Positions 50,838 to 57,153 of a stretch of DNA of 64,000 nt are shown here, piece by piece. The notes under the pieces are model-generated. The model worked only from the letters and a program-made list of their open reading frames with translations. It did not search any database and had not been told where the DNA came from. The stretch's first letter is position 1. The number at the start of each line of letters is the position of its first letter. Source of the stretch: Rhizobiales bacterium NRL2 (GTDB lineage Bacteria; Pseudomonadota; Alphaproteobacteria; Minwuiales; Minwuiaceae); NCBI GenBank assembly GCA_001664005.1, contig CP016093.1:310001-374000 (forward strand), in the 5' to 3' direction. Made by a program: the position numbers and the translations under genes.

Positions 50838-51833
50838 CTACTTCTTCTTCCCGAAACTGAAGCCGGCGCAGCGGTCGGGGCTGGGGGTCAGGGCGGTGAA
50901 GATCACGAAGTCGAACTGGCGGGCGTTGTCGACATAGGCGGCGGCCGCGGTCTCGCCGGGGACGGCCTCGATCAGGCCGATGCTCACCGCGTCCGGGTTG
51001 GTGCCGAGATAGATCGGCACGCCCCGGTCGGCGCGGACATGGCCGTTGCCGGCGATCAGCACCGCGCCGTCGCCGGCGTCGGCCTGCAGCAGCGCGGCGG
51101 CCATGGCGGCGTCACGGCTGCGCTGGATGCGGTTCATCGGCGCCAGCATGCGTTCGGGCATGACACCGCAATGGCCCTCCACCAGATCGAGGTTGAGCGC
51201 GGTCTCCTCGCGCTGGCTCCAGGGCGCGAGGCGCAGCAGCCGTGCGGTCACGGGGTCGGTCAGGGCCGACAGCCCGTCGCGCATCAGCCGGCCCACGGTG
51301 GCGCGGTCGAAGTTGGCGGCGTGCTGCGGCAGGCCGGCGGCCATCGCCACCTCCGCGATGGGGCGGTAGGTTTCCCATTCGGGCCAGCCCGATTCCGCCC
51401 AGCCGACGGCGTCGCCCAGGCCGGCGGCGTCGGCGCCGGGGCGGGCCAGATAGGCCTGCAGCGCGTCTTCCCGGGTGAAGTCGATCATCTCCCAGACCAC
51501 GGCGGGCCGCCGGTCGGCGCGCACCAGCTCGGCCAGGATGCCGGCCTGCAGGCGGTGGTGATCGGGATTGTCGTGCTTCTCACCGATCAGCACGAAGCGC
51601 GTGCCGGCGATATGGCGCGCCAGCTCCGCCTCGCTGGCCTCCCGGCCTTCGCCGGGAATCCAGATGCGGCCGATCAGCGGGTGCGCGCGGCGGCCGCTCT
51701 CCTGCACGTTGAGCAGCGGCGGCAGCGCAGCTTCGGATCCGCCGCCGCGGCCGTCGCCGGCGCCCTGTTCGGCGCAGGCGGCGAGCAGCAGAAGGCCCGT
51801 CAGAAGGGCGGCGATGCGTGACAGAAGAGACAT
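50838..51833 (-). CDS. ChaN family lipoprotein
   Basis: A 331-residue protein with signal peptide and lipobox GLLLLAAC, then a ChaN-type domain: FVLIGEKHDNPDHHRLQ, VVWEMIDFTREDAL and IAGNGHVRADRGVP. ChaN-type proteins of pathogens bind haem at the outer membrane. Here haem or iron function is inferred. ATG at 51833 starts MSLLSRIAALL; the longer frame to 52112 is rejected because no signal peptide would result. Confidence 0.88.
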   Translation of the reverse strand: MSLLSRIAALLTGLLLLAACAEQGAGDGRGGGSEAALPPLLNVQESGRRAHPLIGRIWIPGEGREASEAELARHIAGTRFVLIGEKHDNPDHHRLQAGILAELVRADRRPAVVWEMIDFTREDALQAYLARPGADAAGLGDAVGWAESGWPEWETYRPIAEVAMAAGLPQHAANFDRATVGRLMRDGLSALTDPVTARLLRLAPWSQREETALNLDLVEGHCGVMPERMLAPMNRIQRSRDAAMAAALLQADAGDGAVLIAGNGHVRADRGVPIYLGTNPDAVSIGLIEAVPGETAAAAYVDNARQFDFVIFTALTPSPDRCAGFSFGKKK

Positions 51834-51933: not shown

Positions 51934-52122
51934 TCATTCCTTCGGCATCTTGATGATGCAGTTCTTCGTGAACTCGGCGGTTTCGTTGAGCGTCCACTCG
52001 CCCTTCGGCTTCTCCTCCATTCCGGCGCACCATTCGTCGCTGCCGACCTCGGGTTCGCAGGCCGCCACGAGCGCCAGAAGCGCCGCCGCGGCGCCCCATT
52101 TCGCCAGATCATTCGCCCTCAT
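51934..52122 (-). CDS. DUF3012 domain-containing lipoprotein
   Basis: A 62-residue protein with signal peptide, lipobox ALVAAC (Cys near residue 21), and the DUF3012 pattern CEPEVGSDEWCAGMEEKPKG, then WTLNETAEFTKNCI. The fixed Cys pair suggests a disulfide. Function is unknown. GGAGGTG is about eight bases before the ATG. Its start overlaps the upstream MFS gene by 14 bases, so it is co-transcribed with it. Confidence 0.88.
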   Translation of the reverse strand: MRANDLAKWGAAAALLALVAACEPEVGSDEWCAGMEEKPKGEWTLNETAEFTKNCIIKMPKE

Positions 52123-53431
52123 CGTGTTGCACCTCCTCAAGGCCGATCGCGACCACCGAGGCCGCGACGCACATTGCCGCGAACAGGGCCAGCACCGCCG
52201 CCTCGCCAAAGGCCGAGGCGAGGAAGCCGACGCCCGCGCCCGCCAGCAATAGCACGCCGATGATGGTATTGGAGAGAGCCGTGTAGGCCGCGCGGCTGTC
52301 GCGGCCGGCCATGTCGGTCAGATGCGTCGCCCGCGCCAGCCGCACGCCCTGATAGGCGAGCTGCAGCACGAACAGCAGCGCCGGCAGCACCCAGCCGGAC
52401 TTGTCGATCTCCCCGCCGGTGCGGTCGAGGAGCACCGCGAGCACGAAGGCCAGGGCCGCCAGCAGTCCGGCGGCGATCAGCACCTTGCGGCTGGAGCGGT
52501 CCGAGGCGCGGCCCCAGACATAGCCACCCAGGATCGCCGCGGCCGAGGAGGCGATCAGGAACAGGCCGAGGCCGCCCAGGCCGCCGGATTCCTCGGCCGC
52601 ACCGGCCAGCGCCAGCAGATAGGGCGGCGCCAGCGCCGTGGCGATCAGCAGCGCCCGGACGACGATGAATCGCACCAGCTGCCCGTCCGTGCGCAGCAGG
52701 CCGAACTGCTCGATCGCCACCCGGAAGGGATTGCCGCCGCCCTCGGTCGCCCCGGGCTCTTCCTTCAGGGTCGTGAAGACGCCGGCGGCGGCGATCCACA
52801 GCCCGCCGGCGACGAAAAGCACCACGGCGATGATCTCGGCCGTCTTCGGCAGTATGCCCGCGCCCAGCAGCAGCCCGAAGGCCAGCACCCCGGCGGAGGC
52901 GAGGCTGCCGGCCGTGCCGGTTGCGGTGCCGCGCGTCGACTTGGAGACCGTCTTGCCCAGCACGTCCTTGTAGCTCACCGAGCAGGCGCTGCGGGCGAGG
53001 GCGAAGACCGTGAGCAGGCCGACGATGGCCCAGCCCGCGGCAGCGCCCTCCAGCGTCAGCGCCGCCAGGCCGATGCCGATCACCGCGCCGCCCTGGACCA
53101 GCGAGCCGCCGGCCCAGACCCACTTGCGTTGCGGCAGGGACCGGATTTTCGCCGAAACGAACAGCTGCGGCAGCAGGGCGCCCGCCTCCCGGATCGGCAC
53201 CAGGAAGCCGATCAGATAGACCGGCGCACCCAGCGCGCCCATCAGCCAGGCCAGCACCAGCTTCGGATCGATCAGCCCGTCGCCCAGCTTGGTCGCCGCC
53301 AGGCTGATGACGTGGCGCATGAAGTTCTCGGGCTGCGCGTTGCAGGCGCTTTCGGGGATGTCGCGGCAGACCCGGCCCTCGTCCTCCGACGTCAGGACCG
53401 CGTAGGCGCGCTGGACGGCGGTTTCGGCCAT
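52109..53431 (-). CDS. MFS transporter
   Basis: A 440-residue membrane protein with about twelve hydrophobic segments; SLVQGGAVIGIGLAALTLEGA and FGLLLGAGILPKTAEIIAVVLFV are examples. A soluble N-terminal stretch of roughly 35 residues precedes the first segment, and the middle loop is long (TLKEEPGATEGGGNPFRV). Substrate unknown. It starts only seven bases after the EncFtn-like gene stop and overlaps the DUF3012 gene, so the three form one transcript. Confidence 0.9.
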   Translation of the reverse strand: MAETAVQRAYAVLTSEDEGRVCRDIPESACNAQPENFMRHVISLAATKLGDGLIDPKLVLAWLMGALGAPVYLIGFLVPIREAGALLPQLFVSAKIRSLPQRKWVWAGGSLVQGGAVIGIGLAALTLEGAAAGWAIVGLLTVFALARSACSVSYKDVLGKTVSKSTRGTATGTAGSLASAGVLAFGLLLGAGILPKTAEIIAVVLFVAGGLWIAAAGVFTTLKEEPGATEGGGNPFRVAIEQFGLLRTDGQLVRFIVVRALLIATALAPPYLLALAGAAEESGGLGGLGLFLIASSAAAILGGYVWGRASDRSSRKVLIAAGLLAALAFVLAVLLDRTGGEIDKSGWVLPALLFVLQLAYQGVRLARATHLTDMAGRDSRAAYTALSNTIIGVLLLAGAGVGFLASAFGEAAVLALFAAMCVAASVVAIGLEEVQHDEGE

Positions 53432-53438
53432 GACCGGT

Positions 53439-53726
53439 TCAGTGATCCGAGATTTCGCCGTCCTTGAACAGGAATTCCCGCAGATGGGCGTCGAAATCCT
53501 TGGAGTTGCGGCGGATCCACTCGATGACCATGGCGGCGTGCTCCATCTCCTCGCGCATGTTGTGGAGCAGGATCTCCTTAAGCGCCTCGTCCTCGCAATC
53601 GTCGGCGCGCTGGCGGTACCAGTCGACCGCCTCCATCTCCTCCATCAGGGAGACGATGGCGTGGTGCATGTGCAGGGTCTCTTTCGACAGGCGCTCGCGC
53701 GGTGCGTGCAGGTTCTCGCTCGACAT
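53439..53726 (-). CDS. Encapsulated-ferritin-like (EncFtn family) protein
   Basis: A 95-residue two-helix ferritin-like protein. The pattern LMEEMEAVDWY and NMREEMEHAAM gives Glu30, Trp36, Tyr37, Glu60 and His63, matching the EncFtn ferroxidase residues of Rhodospirillum rubrum with a two-residue offset. EncFtn forms a ring that oxidises ferrous iron and delivers it into an encapsulin shell. Here the protein stops at DGEISDH with no C-terminal encapsulin-targeting peptide, and no encapsulin gene is in the window. GGGAGGG precedes the ATG. It heads a transcript with the MFS and DUF3012 genes. Confidence 0.87.
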   Translation of the reverse strand: MSSENLHAPRERLSKETLHMHHAIVSLMEEMEAVDWYRQRADDCEDEALKEILLHNMREEMEHAAMVIEWIRRNSKDFDAHLREFLFKDGEISDH

Positions 53727-53851: not shown

Positions 53852-54868
53852 TCAGGCGGGCCGGGCCATCAGGGTCAGGATCTCGAACAGCATCTGGCCG
53901 CCCGTCAGCGCGGTATTGGTGGACGGGTCGTATTGCGGCGCGATCTCGACCACGTCGCCGCCGACGATGTCGAGCCCGTCCAGGCCGCGCAGGATCGCCT
54001 GGGCCTCGCGCGGGGTCAGGCCGCCGACCTCCGGCGTGCCGGTGCCCGGCGCGTAGACCGGATCGAGCCCGTCGACGTCGAAGCTGACATAGACCGGGCC
54101 GCCGCCGACCACCTCGCGCGCCTTCTCGATCACCGCCGCCGGTCCCATCTCGGCGACGTCCTCGATGTGCAGCACGGTCATGCCGGCGTCGCAGGAGAAT
54201 TCCCAGATGATCTCCGAGGAGCCGCGGATGCCGATCTGGATCGTGCGCTCGGGGTCCAGCACGCCCGCCAGCACCGCCTGACGGAACGGTCCGCCGTGAT
54301 GGAACTTGGAATAGTCGTACTCGCCGCCGGTGTCGCAATGGGCGTCGATATGGACCATGCCGAGCGGCCGGCCGTCCCCCAGCGCCTTCATGATCGGATA
54401 GGTGATGGAGTGGTCGCCGCCCACCGAGAGCGGCCGCACGCCTGCCTCGCGGACCTTGCGGTAATGCGCCTCGATGTCCTCGATGCACATCTCCAGGCTG
54501 AAGCGGCTGCGGAAGTCGACATCGCCGGTGTCGGCCACCTTCGCCTCGGCGAAGGGCGCGCGGCGCAGCACGTGGTGATAGGGGCCGATCCGTTCGATGT
54601 CGCGCACCGCCCGCGGGCCGAAGCGTGCGCCGGGGCGGTTGGTGACGCCGAGATCCATGGGGACGCCGATGAGGGCGATGTCGAGGCCGTCCAGGCTGCC
54701 GGCGATCGGCGCGTCCAGCAGGGTCGGGATGCCCGCATAGGGCGGCTTGCGCCGCTGCGGATCGGCGAAGACGATCTCAGCCGCCCGCCTCAGTTCCGGA
54801 TCGAAGATGTCGCCGCCCCTGGCGTCGGCGTATTTCGCCCTGAGCCTTTCGAGATTGTCGCGATCCAT
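53852..54868 (-). CDS. speB: Agmatinase / ureohydrolase family protein
   Basis: A 338-residue binuclear manganese hydrolase. Metal ligands lie in GGDHSITYP, HIDAHCDTG and SFDVDGLDP. The family includes agmatinase (agmatine to putrescine and urea), guanidinobutyrase and related enzymes; the substrate cannot be fixed from sequence alone, so the symbol is provisional. It is transcribed toward the EncFtn-like gene with a 125-base gap. Confidence 0.9.
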   Translation of the reverse strand: MDRDNLERLRAKYADARGGDIFDPELRRAAEIVFADPQRRKPPYAGIPTLLDAPIAGSLDGLDIALIGVPMDLGVTNRPGARFGPRAVRDIERIGPYHHVLRRAPFAEAKVADTGDVDFRSRFSLEMCIEDIEAHYRKVREAGVRPLSVGGDHSITYPIMKALGDGRPLGMVHIDAHCDTGGEYDYSKFHHGGPFRQAVLAGVLDPERTIQIGIRGSSEIIWEFSCDAGMTVLHIEDVAEMGPAAVIEKAREVVGGGPVYVSFDVDGLDPVYAPGTGTPEVGGLTPREAQAILRGLDGLDIVGGDVVEIAPQYDPSTNTALTGGQMLFEILTLMARPA

Positions 54869-54975: not shown

Positions 54976-55497
54976 ATGCCTGGCTTTGCGGAGAGACCGG
55001 ACGACTTCAGGATTCTCGACGATCACGACGAGTCCGTAACCGACCCCATACTCATACAGGGCCGCGAATGGTGGGAAAGCGCCCGCGGCGGGCGCGCCAT
55101 GCCGGGCCGCAAGAACTTCGATCCCGTCGAGGCGCCGCCGGAAATGCTGCCGCACATCCTGCTGGCCGATGTGGTGTGGACGCCCCGGCTGCGTTTCCGC
55201 TACCGGTTGATCGGAACCCATATCACCCAGGCGATGGACCGGGATGCGACAGGGCGCTGGTTCGACGAGTTGTACAATGAATACGAGTACGAGGGCGTCA
55301 CCGCCGGCATCATGCGGGCCATCGAGACGAGGCGGCCCGTGAGCACGCTCGCCAGGGCGCCGGCGGACGAACGCTCCTTCCTCCAGATCGAGGCCGTGGA
55401 CATGCCGCTCGCCGCGAACGGCTGGGACGTCGACATGATCATGACGTTGTGCAGCATCCGCAATCCCAGATTGAATCAGCAGTCCGGTTCCATATGA
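54976..55497 (+). CDS. PAS_5 (PF07310) domain protein 1 of 4
   Basis: A 173-residue single PAS domain of the PF07310 type: FDPVEAPPEMLPHILLADV, FRYRLIGTHITQAM, DATGRWFDELY and an EAVDMPLAANGWDVDMI end. The family is common in Rhodospirillales and often carries no output domain, as here. Ligand and role are unknown. First of four tandem paralogues; more diverged than the other three. Confidence 0.88.
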   Translation: MPGFAERPDDFRILDDHDESVTDPILIQGREWWESARGGRAMPGRKNFDPVEAPPEMLPHILLADVVWTPRLRFRYRLIGTHITQAMDRDATGRWFDELYNEYEYEGVTAGIMRAIETRRPVSTLARAPADERSFLQIEAVDMPLAANGWDVDMIMTLCSIRNPRLNQQSGSI

Positions 55498-55608
55498 CCG
55501 GTTGCGGAATGGTGCCCCGGAATCCCACCGCCCACCGTGCCGCCATTGACGGCGAGGTCGCTTTGGCGGATTCATGGAACAGGGGGCCGTCTGCCTTCCG
55601 GGGGTAGC

Positions 55609-56133
55609 ATGAACAGTTTCATCGATAGCCGCACCGGCGCGTTCCGGATCGTGGCGGTCGAGGAGTCCGAAGTCGAGAGTCCGCTGCTGCTGGAGGCGCG
55701 CGCCCTGTGGGACCGCCTGCGCGGCGACCGGCCGATGCCGTCCCGGCGGGACTTCGATCCCGTGGAGGCCCCGCGGCGGCTGCTGCCGCACATGATGCTG
55801 GTCGACGTCGCCTACGGCCAGACCCCGTCGCCGCGTTTCCGCTGGCGGCTGCTCGGCACCCATGTCACCACGGCCATGGGCCGGGATTCGAGCGGGCGCT
55901 GGTTCGACGAGATCTACCACGAACGCGAGATGGAACTGGTCGTCGGCGGCATGCGGACTGCGATCGAGACGCGCCGGCCCTGTTTCACGCGCGCCCGCGC
56001 GCCCAGCGAGGAACGCTCCTTTCTGCTGGTGGAGGCGGTCGACATGCCGCTGTCGTCCGACGGCGAGCGCGTCGACATGATCCTGGGCGCCTGCCATTTC
56101 TACAGCCCCGCACCCGACGGGCAGCAGTCATGA
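55609..56133 (+). CDS. PAS_5 (PF07310) domain protein 2 of 4
   Basis: A 174-residue paralogue: FDPVEAPRRLLPHMMLVDV, FRWRLLGTHVTTAM, DSSGRWFDEIY and EAVDMPLSSDGERVDM. Single PAS domain, no membrane segment or output domain. GGGGG lies five bases before the ATG. It overlaps the next gene in ATGA. Confidence 0.88.
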   Translation: MNSFIDSRTGAFRIVAVEESEVESPLLLEARALWDRLRGDRPMPSRRDFDPVEAPRRLLPHMMLVDVAYGQTPSPRFRWRLLGTHVTTAMGRDSSGRWFDEIYHEREMELVVGGMRTAIETRRPCFTRARAPSEERSFLLVEAVDMPLSSDGERVDMILGACHFYSPAPDGQQS

Positions 56134-56642
56134 GCGGCCCCGAACCGATGCCGCTGCCGGCGGTCTTCCGGGTGGAACTGGACCCGGAGTTGGCGGTCGT
56201 GAGCCCGGTCCTGGCCGAGGCCCTGCGGCTCTGGGAGGCGCTGCGCGGACCGCGGCAGATGCCGGCGCGCCGCGACTTCGATCCGGCGGAGACGCCGCGC
56301 GCCCTGCTGCCCCACATCCTGCTGATCGACGTCGACGCCGGGGAGGGGGCGGAGTCGCGTTTCCGCTGGCGGCTGATCGGCACCCATGTGACGACCATGC
56401 TGGGCCGCGACATGACCGGGCGCTGGTTCGACGAGATCTACGACGCGGGGACGCTGACATCCATCACCACCGGCCCGCGCTGGGTGCTGGCCAACCGCCG
56501 CCCCGTACGCACCGTGGGCCAGGCGCCGGTTGACGAACGCAGCTATCTGCGCTCGGAAAACCTCCACATGCCGCTTTCCGACGACGGCCGGCGCGTCGAC
56601 AAGATTCTGGTCGCCACCGACCTCCGGTCCATCAGGTTATGA
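56130..56642 (+). CDS. PAS_5 (PF07310) domain protein 3 of 4
   Basis: A 170-residue paralogue: FDPAETPRALLPHILLIDV, FRWRLIGTHVTTML, DMTGRWFDEIY and SENLHMPLSDDGRRVDKI. It starts in the stop codon of copy 2 and is followed after ten bases by copy 4, so the array is one transcript. Confidence 0.88.
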   Translation: MSGPEPMPLPAVFRVELDPELAVVSPVLAEALRLWEALRGPRQMPARRDFDPAETPRALLPHILLIDVDAGEGAESRFRWRLIGTHVTTMLGRDMTGRWFDEIYDAGTLTSITTGPRWVLANRRPVRTVGQAPVDERSYLRSENLHMPLSDDGRRVDKILVATDLRSIRL

Positions 56643-56652
56643 CGAGGATCCG

Positions 56653-57153
56653 ATGACTCCCGCTCCAGACCGCCATTTCCCGAACTGGTTCCGGATGGAG
56701 CTCGCGCCTGTCGACGATATCCGCAGCGACGCGCTCCGGGCCGGTCTGGCCGCCTGGCGCAACGCCCGCGGGGAACGCGAGATGCCGGCGCGCCGCGATC
56801 TGGACCCCACGGCGATGCCGGGATTCCTGTTGCGGCATCTGCTGCTGATCGACGTGAAGCATGCGCCGCGTCTTCGCCTGCGCTGGCGGCTGATCGGCAC
56901 TCATGTCACCGAGATGATGGGCCGCGACTCGACCGGGCGGTACTGGGACGAACTCTACCCGCCGGAGATCGCCGATATCCTGGCGACCGGCCCCGCCGCC
57001 GCGATGCGGACGCGCGGACCGGTGCGCACCCTCGGCGTCGCCCCCGCCGGCGACCGCAGCTATCTGCGCTCCGAGAACCTGGACATGCCGCTGTCCTCGG
57101 ACGGCGAGACGGTCGACATGATCATGGTGGTCAGCGATTTCGGCCGGCGCTGA
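56653..57153 (+). CDS. PAS_5 (PF07310) domain protein 4 of 4
   Basis: A 166-residue paralogue: LDPTAMPGFLLRHLLLIDV, LRWRLIGTHVTEMM, DSTGRYWDELY and SENLDMPLSSDGETVDM. The usual FDP is LDP and RWFDE is RYWDE, so it is somewhat diverged. No output domain. It ends before the ABC-F gene with an 89-base gap. Confidence 0.88.
   Translation: MTPAPDRHFPNWFRMELAPVDDIRSDALRAGLAAWRNARGEREMPARRDLDPTAMPGFLLRHLLLIDVKHAPRLRLRWRLIGTHVTEMMGRDSTGRYWDELYPPEIADILATGPAAAMRTRGPVRTLGVAPAGDRSYLRSENLDMPLSSDGETVDMIMVVSDFGRR

What the first reader, a model, noticed from the sequence alone, without database searches (positions are those of the whole stretch)
51934..53726. EncFtn-like ferroxidase core without encapsulin, coupled to an MFS transporter and a DUF3012 lipoprotein
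The 95-residue protein at 53439-53726 has the EncFtn ferroxidase residues (Glu30, Glu60, His63, Trp36-Tyr37) but ends before any targeting peptide, and no encapsulin gene is in the window. It shares a transcript (gaps of 7 bases and an overlap of 14) with an MFS permease and a small Cys-pair lipoprotein. A ChaN-like lipoprotein, a family with haem-binding members, lies next. Known biology: EncFtn alone lowers free iron less well than in a shell because it does not store the mineral. Inference: iron oxidised by a free ring could be exported or handed to a membrane partner, a ferritin-transporter module not described to my knowledge.
Basis: partly seen in the sequence, partly recalled or inferred. 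Interest (0 to 1): 0.75.

Follow-up and report, generated by a model that had tools for sequence, protein, structure and literature searches.

The report
Shell-free encapsulin-type ferritin paired with transporter
A marine alphaproteobacterium keeps a small iron-oxidising ferritin that works without its usual protein shell and sits next to a membrane transporter gene; the ferritin type is already known, but its repeated pairing with this transporter family looks real and unexplained.

Summary
The 95-aa protein at 53439-53726 (-) is an EncFtn-family ferroxidase with every iron-site residue intact and no targeting peptide. It is followed 7 bases later by an MFS permease, a DUF3012 lipoprotein (14-base overlap) and a ChaN-like lipoprotein.

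Three corrections. (1) The genome does hold a classical encapsulin with its own tagged EncFtn, outside the window. Five of seven genus members lack any family-1 encapsulin yet keep the short EncFtn and the MFS, so the short form is shell-independent. (2) Short EncFtns are a described class (s-FLP / "Non-EncFtn", PDB 3k6c) of unknown function. (3) DUF3012 is not a conserved partner.

The new point is that the EncFtn-MFS linkage recurs: adjacent in all 7 Minwuia genomes and in two genera of another family, and divergent near-neighbours in two further families. Most EncFtn loci fetched in a genome-wide scan lack it. The MFS fold is generic and has no assigned substrate. Best reading: a cytosolic ferroxidase for iron/peroxide stress, in some lineages co-expressed with an efflux transporter. 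Export of the ring's iron is untested; ferritin-exporter coupling already has a precedent in MbfA.

The parts
53439..53726 (-). short EncFtn (s-FLP), 95 aa, intact di-iron ferroxidase residues, no targeting peptide
   Evidence: PF22277 E=1.4e-37; PDB 5n5f/5da5/3k6c; residues near-invariant in 73 short homologues, none of 82 tails TP-like
52109..53431 (-). MFS permease, 440 aa, MFS fold; conserved soluble N-terminal stretch with a Cys pair
   Evidence: PF07690 E=2.3e-11; AlphaFold2 model pLDDT 83.2; nearest solved folds MdfA, AmpG, SPNS2; adjacent to EncFtn in 7/7 Minwuia
53342..53368 (-). codons 22-30 of the MFS: C22-RDIPESA-C30 motif before TM1
   Evidence: alignment of MFS homologues
51934..52122 (-). 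DUF3012 lipoprotein, 62 aa, lipobox LVAAC; species-level addition rather than conserved partner
   Evidence: PF11216 E=5.2e-16; next to the MFS only in G000 and G004 of 143 relatives
50838..51833 (-). ChaN-like lipoprotein (Cofac_haem_bdg), last gene of the array; present downstream in the Minwuia genomes whose contigs reach that far
   Evidence: PF04187 E=1.6e-44
53852..54868 (-). agmatinase, upstream on the same strand; shared only with the nearest sister species in the genus, probably not part of the unit
   Evidence: TIGR01230 above cut-off

Best explanation
The 95-aa protein is a shell-independent EncFtn-type ferroxidase (s-FLP) that forms the usual ring in the cytosol and oxidises Fe(II), lowering Fenton chemistry during iron or peroxide stress rather than storing mineral. 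In Minwuia, and in a few other alphaproteobacterial lineages, its gene is co-transcribed or co-located with one MFS subfamily. This MFS most likely exports a small molecule that matters in the same stress: an iron complex, a chelator, or a toxic metabolite. Shown here: family, intact active-site residues, absence of a targeting peptide, persistence in genomes without family-1 encapsulin, operon-like spacing, recurrent linkage. Inferred: ring formation, ferroxidase activity in the cell, co-transcription. Guessed: the MFS substrate and any direct hand-over of iron.
For: Family and active site. Short-EncFtn genomes without a family-1 encapsulin, including one-contig genomes G003 and G036. MFS adjacent in 7/7 Minwuia, with the MFS frame opening at a TTG that overlaps the EncFtn stop (TTGA) in five of them. 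Same-strand adjacency in G036 and G400 (gaps about 14 and 24 bases); divergent near-linkage with one gene between in G390 and G425. The MFS tree forces at least 3 changes of the linked label. Genus-level co-occurrence of MFS and EncFtn in one genome: Fisher p=1.7e-4. Isolated EncFtn oxidises but does not mineralise iron (PMC5012862).
Against: Of 71 EncFtn-family loci fetched from named genomes, only 7 have such an MFS in the stretch fetched (up to 6 kb each side). Many MFS homologues sit next to unrelated genes (molybdopterin oxidoreductase, inositol-phosphatase-type gene, DUF1244 and others) and about half of the MFS-bearing genera lack EncFtn. The fold search gives only generic MFS matches, with no iron exporter among the best. 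No Fur, Irr or RirA-like site above the shuffled background was found upstream of the Minwuia genes.
Confidence: 0.55

Rival explanations
1. A two-protein ferroxidase-exporter: the EncFtn ring docks on the MFS (perhaps at its N-terminal Cys motif) and passes oxidised or chelated iron to it for export, a split counterpart of MbfA.
For: Operon-like spacing and recurrent linkage. Precedents: MbfA (ferritin-like domain plus CCC1/VIT-type exporter; evidence for interaction with bacterioferritin) and the MFS iron exporter IceT/MdtD. All five MFS homologues that lack the Cys pair come from genomes without EncFtn (5/5; naive p=0.006).
Against: The Cys motif is family-wide, including in genomes without EncFtn. 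No sequence or fold kinship to a known iron exporter was found. The naive p ignores relatedness.
Confidence: 0.18
2. The short EncFtn joins the tagged EncFtn in mixed rings and is carried into the genome's encapsulin as untagged cargo.
For: The genome has a tagged EncFtn (61% identical) and an encapsulin. PMC11202242 leaves open whether s-FLPs can be encapsulated.
Against: Five of seven Minwuia genomes and about a dozen other genomes keep the short EncFtn with no family-1 encapsulin. The two loci are far apart on the chromosome.
Confidence: 0.07
3. The MFS is an ordinary drug- or metabolite-type transporter; linkage to EncFtn reflects shared stress regulation only, with no iron transport.
For: Nearest folds are drug/metabolite MFS such as MdfA. 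MFS homologues elsewhere have varied neighbours.
Against: Does not explain why the same MFS subfamily recurs beside EncFtn in several families. Cannot be excluded.
Confidence: 0.3
4. Chance neighbourhood kept by descent.
For: Most EncFtn loci lack the MFS.
Against: Four families show linkage within 2 kb; at an assumed chance of about 0.0015 per genome this gives p of order 1e-6 or less even when the discovery lineages are left out (and arithmetic in the report). The order of G036 was sampled because G036 was linked, so this is a rough figure.
Confidence: 0.05

Closest known systems
s-FLP / 'Non-EncFtn' (Nitrosomonas europaea NE0167, PDB 3k6c)
   Same: 95 aa, EncFtn core, no targeting peptide; sequence match E=1.4e-25
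   Different: no MFS partner was seen described for that class in the papers consulted; whether it is shell-free was left open (PMC11202242)
Encapsulated ferritin EncFtn (R. rubrum Rru_A0973, 5da5; H. ochraceum 5n5f)
   Same: same fold family and all ferroxidase residues
   Different: no targeting peptide, no encapsulin gene beside it
MbfA (membrane-bound ferritin iron exporter of alphaproteobacteria)
   Same: couples a ferritin-like ferroxidase to a membrane transporter
   Different: MbfA is one fused protein with a classical ferritin-like domain and a CCC1/VIT1-type exporter; here two genes, EncFtn type and MFS
IceT/MdtD (Salmonella MFS iron exporter)
   Same: MFS transporter; iron export is the property proposed here
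   Different: no ferritin partner known to me; direct kinship to the window MFS was not tested

Membership tests
EncFtn family (PF22277) | profile match over the two-helix core | tested here: met
   127.8 bits vs cut-off 27
EncFtn family (PF22277) | E32/E62/H65 ferroxidase ligands and E31/E34 entry site | tested here: met
   E30, E60, H63, E29, E32 present, near-invariant in 73 short homologues
EncFtn family (PF22277) | iron-dependent decameric ring with ferroxidase activity | not testable with these tools
   relatives 5da5 and 3k6c are decamers
Encapsulated EncFtn (TIGR04535, FLP-TP) | C-terminal targeting peptide | tested here: not met
   ends DGEISDH; TIGR04535 scores 104.4 below its 125 cut-off; no TP-like tail in 82 short homologues
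Encapsulated EncFtn (TIGR04535, FLP-TP) | encapsulin gene adjacent | tested here: not met
   only family-1 encapsulin is at C1:4093541-4094299, beside another EncFtn
s-FLP / Non-EncFtn | about 95 aa EncFtn core without targeting peptide | tested here: met
s-FLP / Non-EncFtn | works outside an encapsulin | tested here: inconclusive
   genomes without family-1 encapsulin keep it; location in the cell not tested, family-2 encapsulins not searched
MbfA-like ferritin exporter | ferritin-like domain fused to a VIT/CCC1 domain | tested here: not met
   EncFtn and PF07690 MFS are separate genes
MFS iron exporters (IceT type) | iron or iron-citrate efflux | not testable with these tools
   only generic MFS matches

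The most novel reading that the evidence does not exclude
A split ferroxidase-exporter: a shell-free EncFtn ring that feeds oxidised or chelated iron to a dedicated MFS transporter, giving the s-FLP class of unknown role a function distinct from storage.
Probability: 0.18. Interest if true: 0.75.

Novelty: new variant of a known kind. Interest (0 to 1): 0.45.

Why it matters
The role of short, untagged EncFtns is left open in the literature (PMC11202242). The survey here shows that they are kept, with all iron ligands, in genomes with no family-1 encapsulin, and that one transporter family recurs beside them. That gives a concrete and testable partner for a class whose EncFtn relatives, studied in isolation, oxidise iron but cannot store it. 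If the transporter moves iron, oxidation would serve export rather than storage.

Tried and rejected
DUF3012 as module member: rejected, next to the MFS in only 2 of 143 genomes; four other Minwuia have a TPR protein in that slot. Agmatinase as partner: same-strand only here and in the nearest sister; it lies divergently beside EncFtn in five other MAGs. Iron-responsive operators upstream of the Minwuia operon: none above shuffles. Solved relatives of the MFS or ChaN by sequence: none. Specific substrate from the MFS fold: only generic MFS matches. Anti-phage models: none. Plasmid-borne close relatives of EncFtn: none above 60% identity.

Full report
What was checked. The window is C1:310001-374000 of a one-contig, 4.70 Mb genome. 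Sister genomes G001-G006 match records named Minwuia or close to it, so the organism is an alphaproteobacterium of that genus (inference from matching contig lengths and coordinates). The gene at 53439-53726 (-) encodes 95 aa and matches PF22277 with E=1.4e-37. Its closest solved relatives are H. ochraceum and R. rubrum encapsulated ferritin and N. europaea NE0167. All ligands of the R. rubrum ferroxidase centre have counterparts. Across 73 short homologues E29, E30, W36, Y37, H55, E59, E60 and H63 never vary, and E32 and E62 vary once each. dN/dS against the nearest sister is about 0.10, and about 0.14 against a more distant one. The MFS, DUF3012 and ChaN genes and the 7-base gap and 14-base overlap are as reported. 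No terminator-like site lies on the minus strand of the array.

The encapsulin question. The genome has one family-1 encapsulin (PF04454, E=5.2e-84) at C1:4093541-4094299. Directly before it, with a 4-base overlap, is a second EncFtn of 123 aa that ends in GDLGIRSLKA, a typical targeting peptide. It does not show that the short EncFtn uses this shell. In 143 relatives, EncFtn-family matches occur in 26 genomes but encapsulin in only 5. In Minwuia, 7 of 7 genomes have the short EncFtn and only 2 of 7 have an encapsulin; one-contig G003 has none. By my count, 17 genomes with the short form lack PF04454. Family-2 encapsulins were not searched. No TP-like tail was found in 82 short homologues, whose tails instead all have I, V or L at residue 92 and mostly contain a histidine. 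The genome also has one PF00210 ferritin-type protein and three Fur-family regulators.

What is known of the short form. PMC11202242 calls such proteins s-FLP, notes that the 3k6c structure is a decamer, and leaves open whether they are encapsulated. PMC5012862 shows a 'Non-EncFtn' group in its tree. The class is therefore known; its role is not.

The MFS partner. In all 7 Minwuia genomes the MFS directly follows EncFtn; in five of them the MFS frame opens with a TTG that overlaps the EncFtn stop (TTGA), which suggests translational coupling. In a scan of named genomes, 71 loci encoding relatives were fetched; 7 of them (five Minwuia-type loci, L065 and L082) have the MFS in the stretch fetched, up to 6 kb each side. 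In the class sample of 385 genomes, 27 have the MFS and 63 have EncFtn; per genus, both occur together in 9 of 18 MFS genera against 30 of 258 others (Fisher p=1.7e-4; relatedness not corrected). Linkage outside Minwuia: G036 and G400 (two genera of one family, same strand, about 14 and 24 bases apart), G390 (divergent, a LysR-type HTH gene between) and G425 (= L065, divergent, one gene between). Leaving out the discovery genus and G036, 3 of 12 genera with both genes are linked within 2 kb; with an assumed chance of about 0.0015 per genome this is of order 1e-6 (arithmetic). The caveat is that G036's order was sampled because G036 was linked. The MFS tree needs 4 changes of the linked label and its well-supported branches force at least 3, so linkage either arose several times or was kept from an ancestor and lost often. 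Elsewhere the MFS sits beside varied genes.

What the MFS may do. It matches MFS_1 only, with no NCBIfam model above cut-off and no solved relative by sequence. An AlphaFold2 model (8 sequences, pLDDT 83.2, pTM 0.84) matches generic MFS structures, best MdfA, AmpG and SPNS2, TM about 0.65. Before TM1 the family has a conserved R-x-C-[RK]-D-I-P-x-x-x-C stretch, with variants. The five homologues that lack the Cys pair (G088, G161, G175, G190, G391) are all from genomes without EncFtn, whereas 23 of 33 with the pair have EncFtn (naive p=0.006). This is a lead, not a result.

Other neighbours. DUF3012 is next to the MFS only in G000 and G004; in four other Minwuia a TPR protein takes that place and ChaN follows. 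Agmatinase lies upstream on the same strand only here and in G004.

Mechanism. Most likely the ring oxidises cytosolic Fe(II) without storing it, consistent with isolated EncFtn (PMC5012862). A transporter that removes the product, a chelator or a toxic metabolite would complement this. Ferroxidase-exporter coupling is known in alphaproteobacteria as MbfA, for which interaction with bacterioferritin is also reported (PMC7762939, PMC4902296), and one MFS iron exporter, IceT, is known. Direct coupling here is a hypothesis.

Verdict.

Noticed in passing
L001 / genome C1:4093541-4094682: Classical cassette in the same genome: tagged EncFtn (ends GDLGIRSLKA) overlapping an encapsulin gene by 4 bases.
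   Followed up: yes
L074, L083, L087, L095, L106, L117, L121, L124, L126 (upstream of EncFtn): An EF-G-like translation factor gene lies upstream of EncFtn on the same strand in nine loci, with both tagged and untagged EncFtn (only the L106 protein was tested against Pfam).
   Followed up: partly
L077, L085, L089, L091, L094: Agmatinase gene divergently oriented next to short EncFtn in five MAGs.
   Followed up: no
L048 upstream of EncFtn; L107; L050: Fur-like box 15/19 (L048), Irr-like box 14/16 (L107) and a long palindrome around CATG (L050) upstream of short EncFtn; the box scores are above the shuffled maximum.
   Followed up: partly
window 53342-53368 (MFS codons 22-30): Family-wide N-terminal Cys pair in the MFS, absent in five homologues from genomes without EncFtn.
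   Followed up: partly
window 54976-57153 (+): Several tandem paralogous ORFs of about 170-210 aa (DRDxTGRWFDELY-like motif); family not identified.
   Followed up: no
L081, L084, L098, L099, L104, L111: Short EncFtn with 74-78% identity in records titled Planctomycetota, Myxococcales and Ilumatobacter(aceae); transfer or mis-binning.
   Followed up: no
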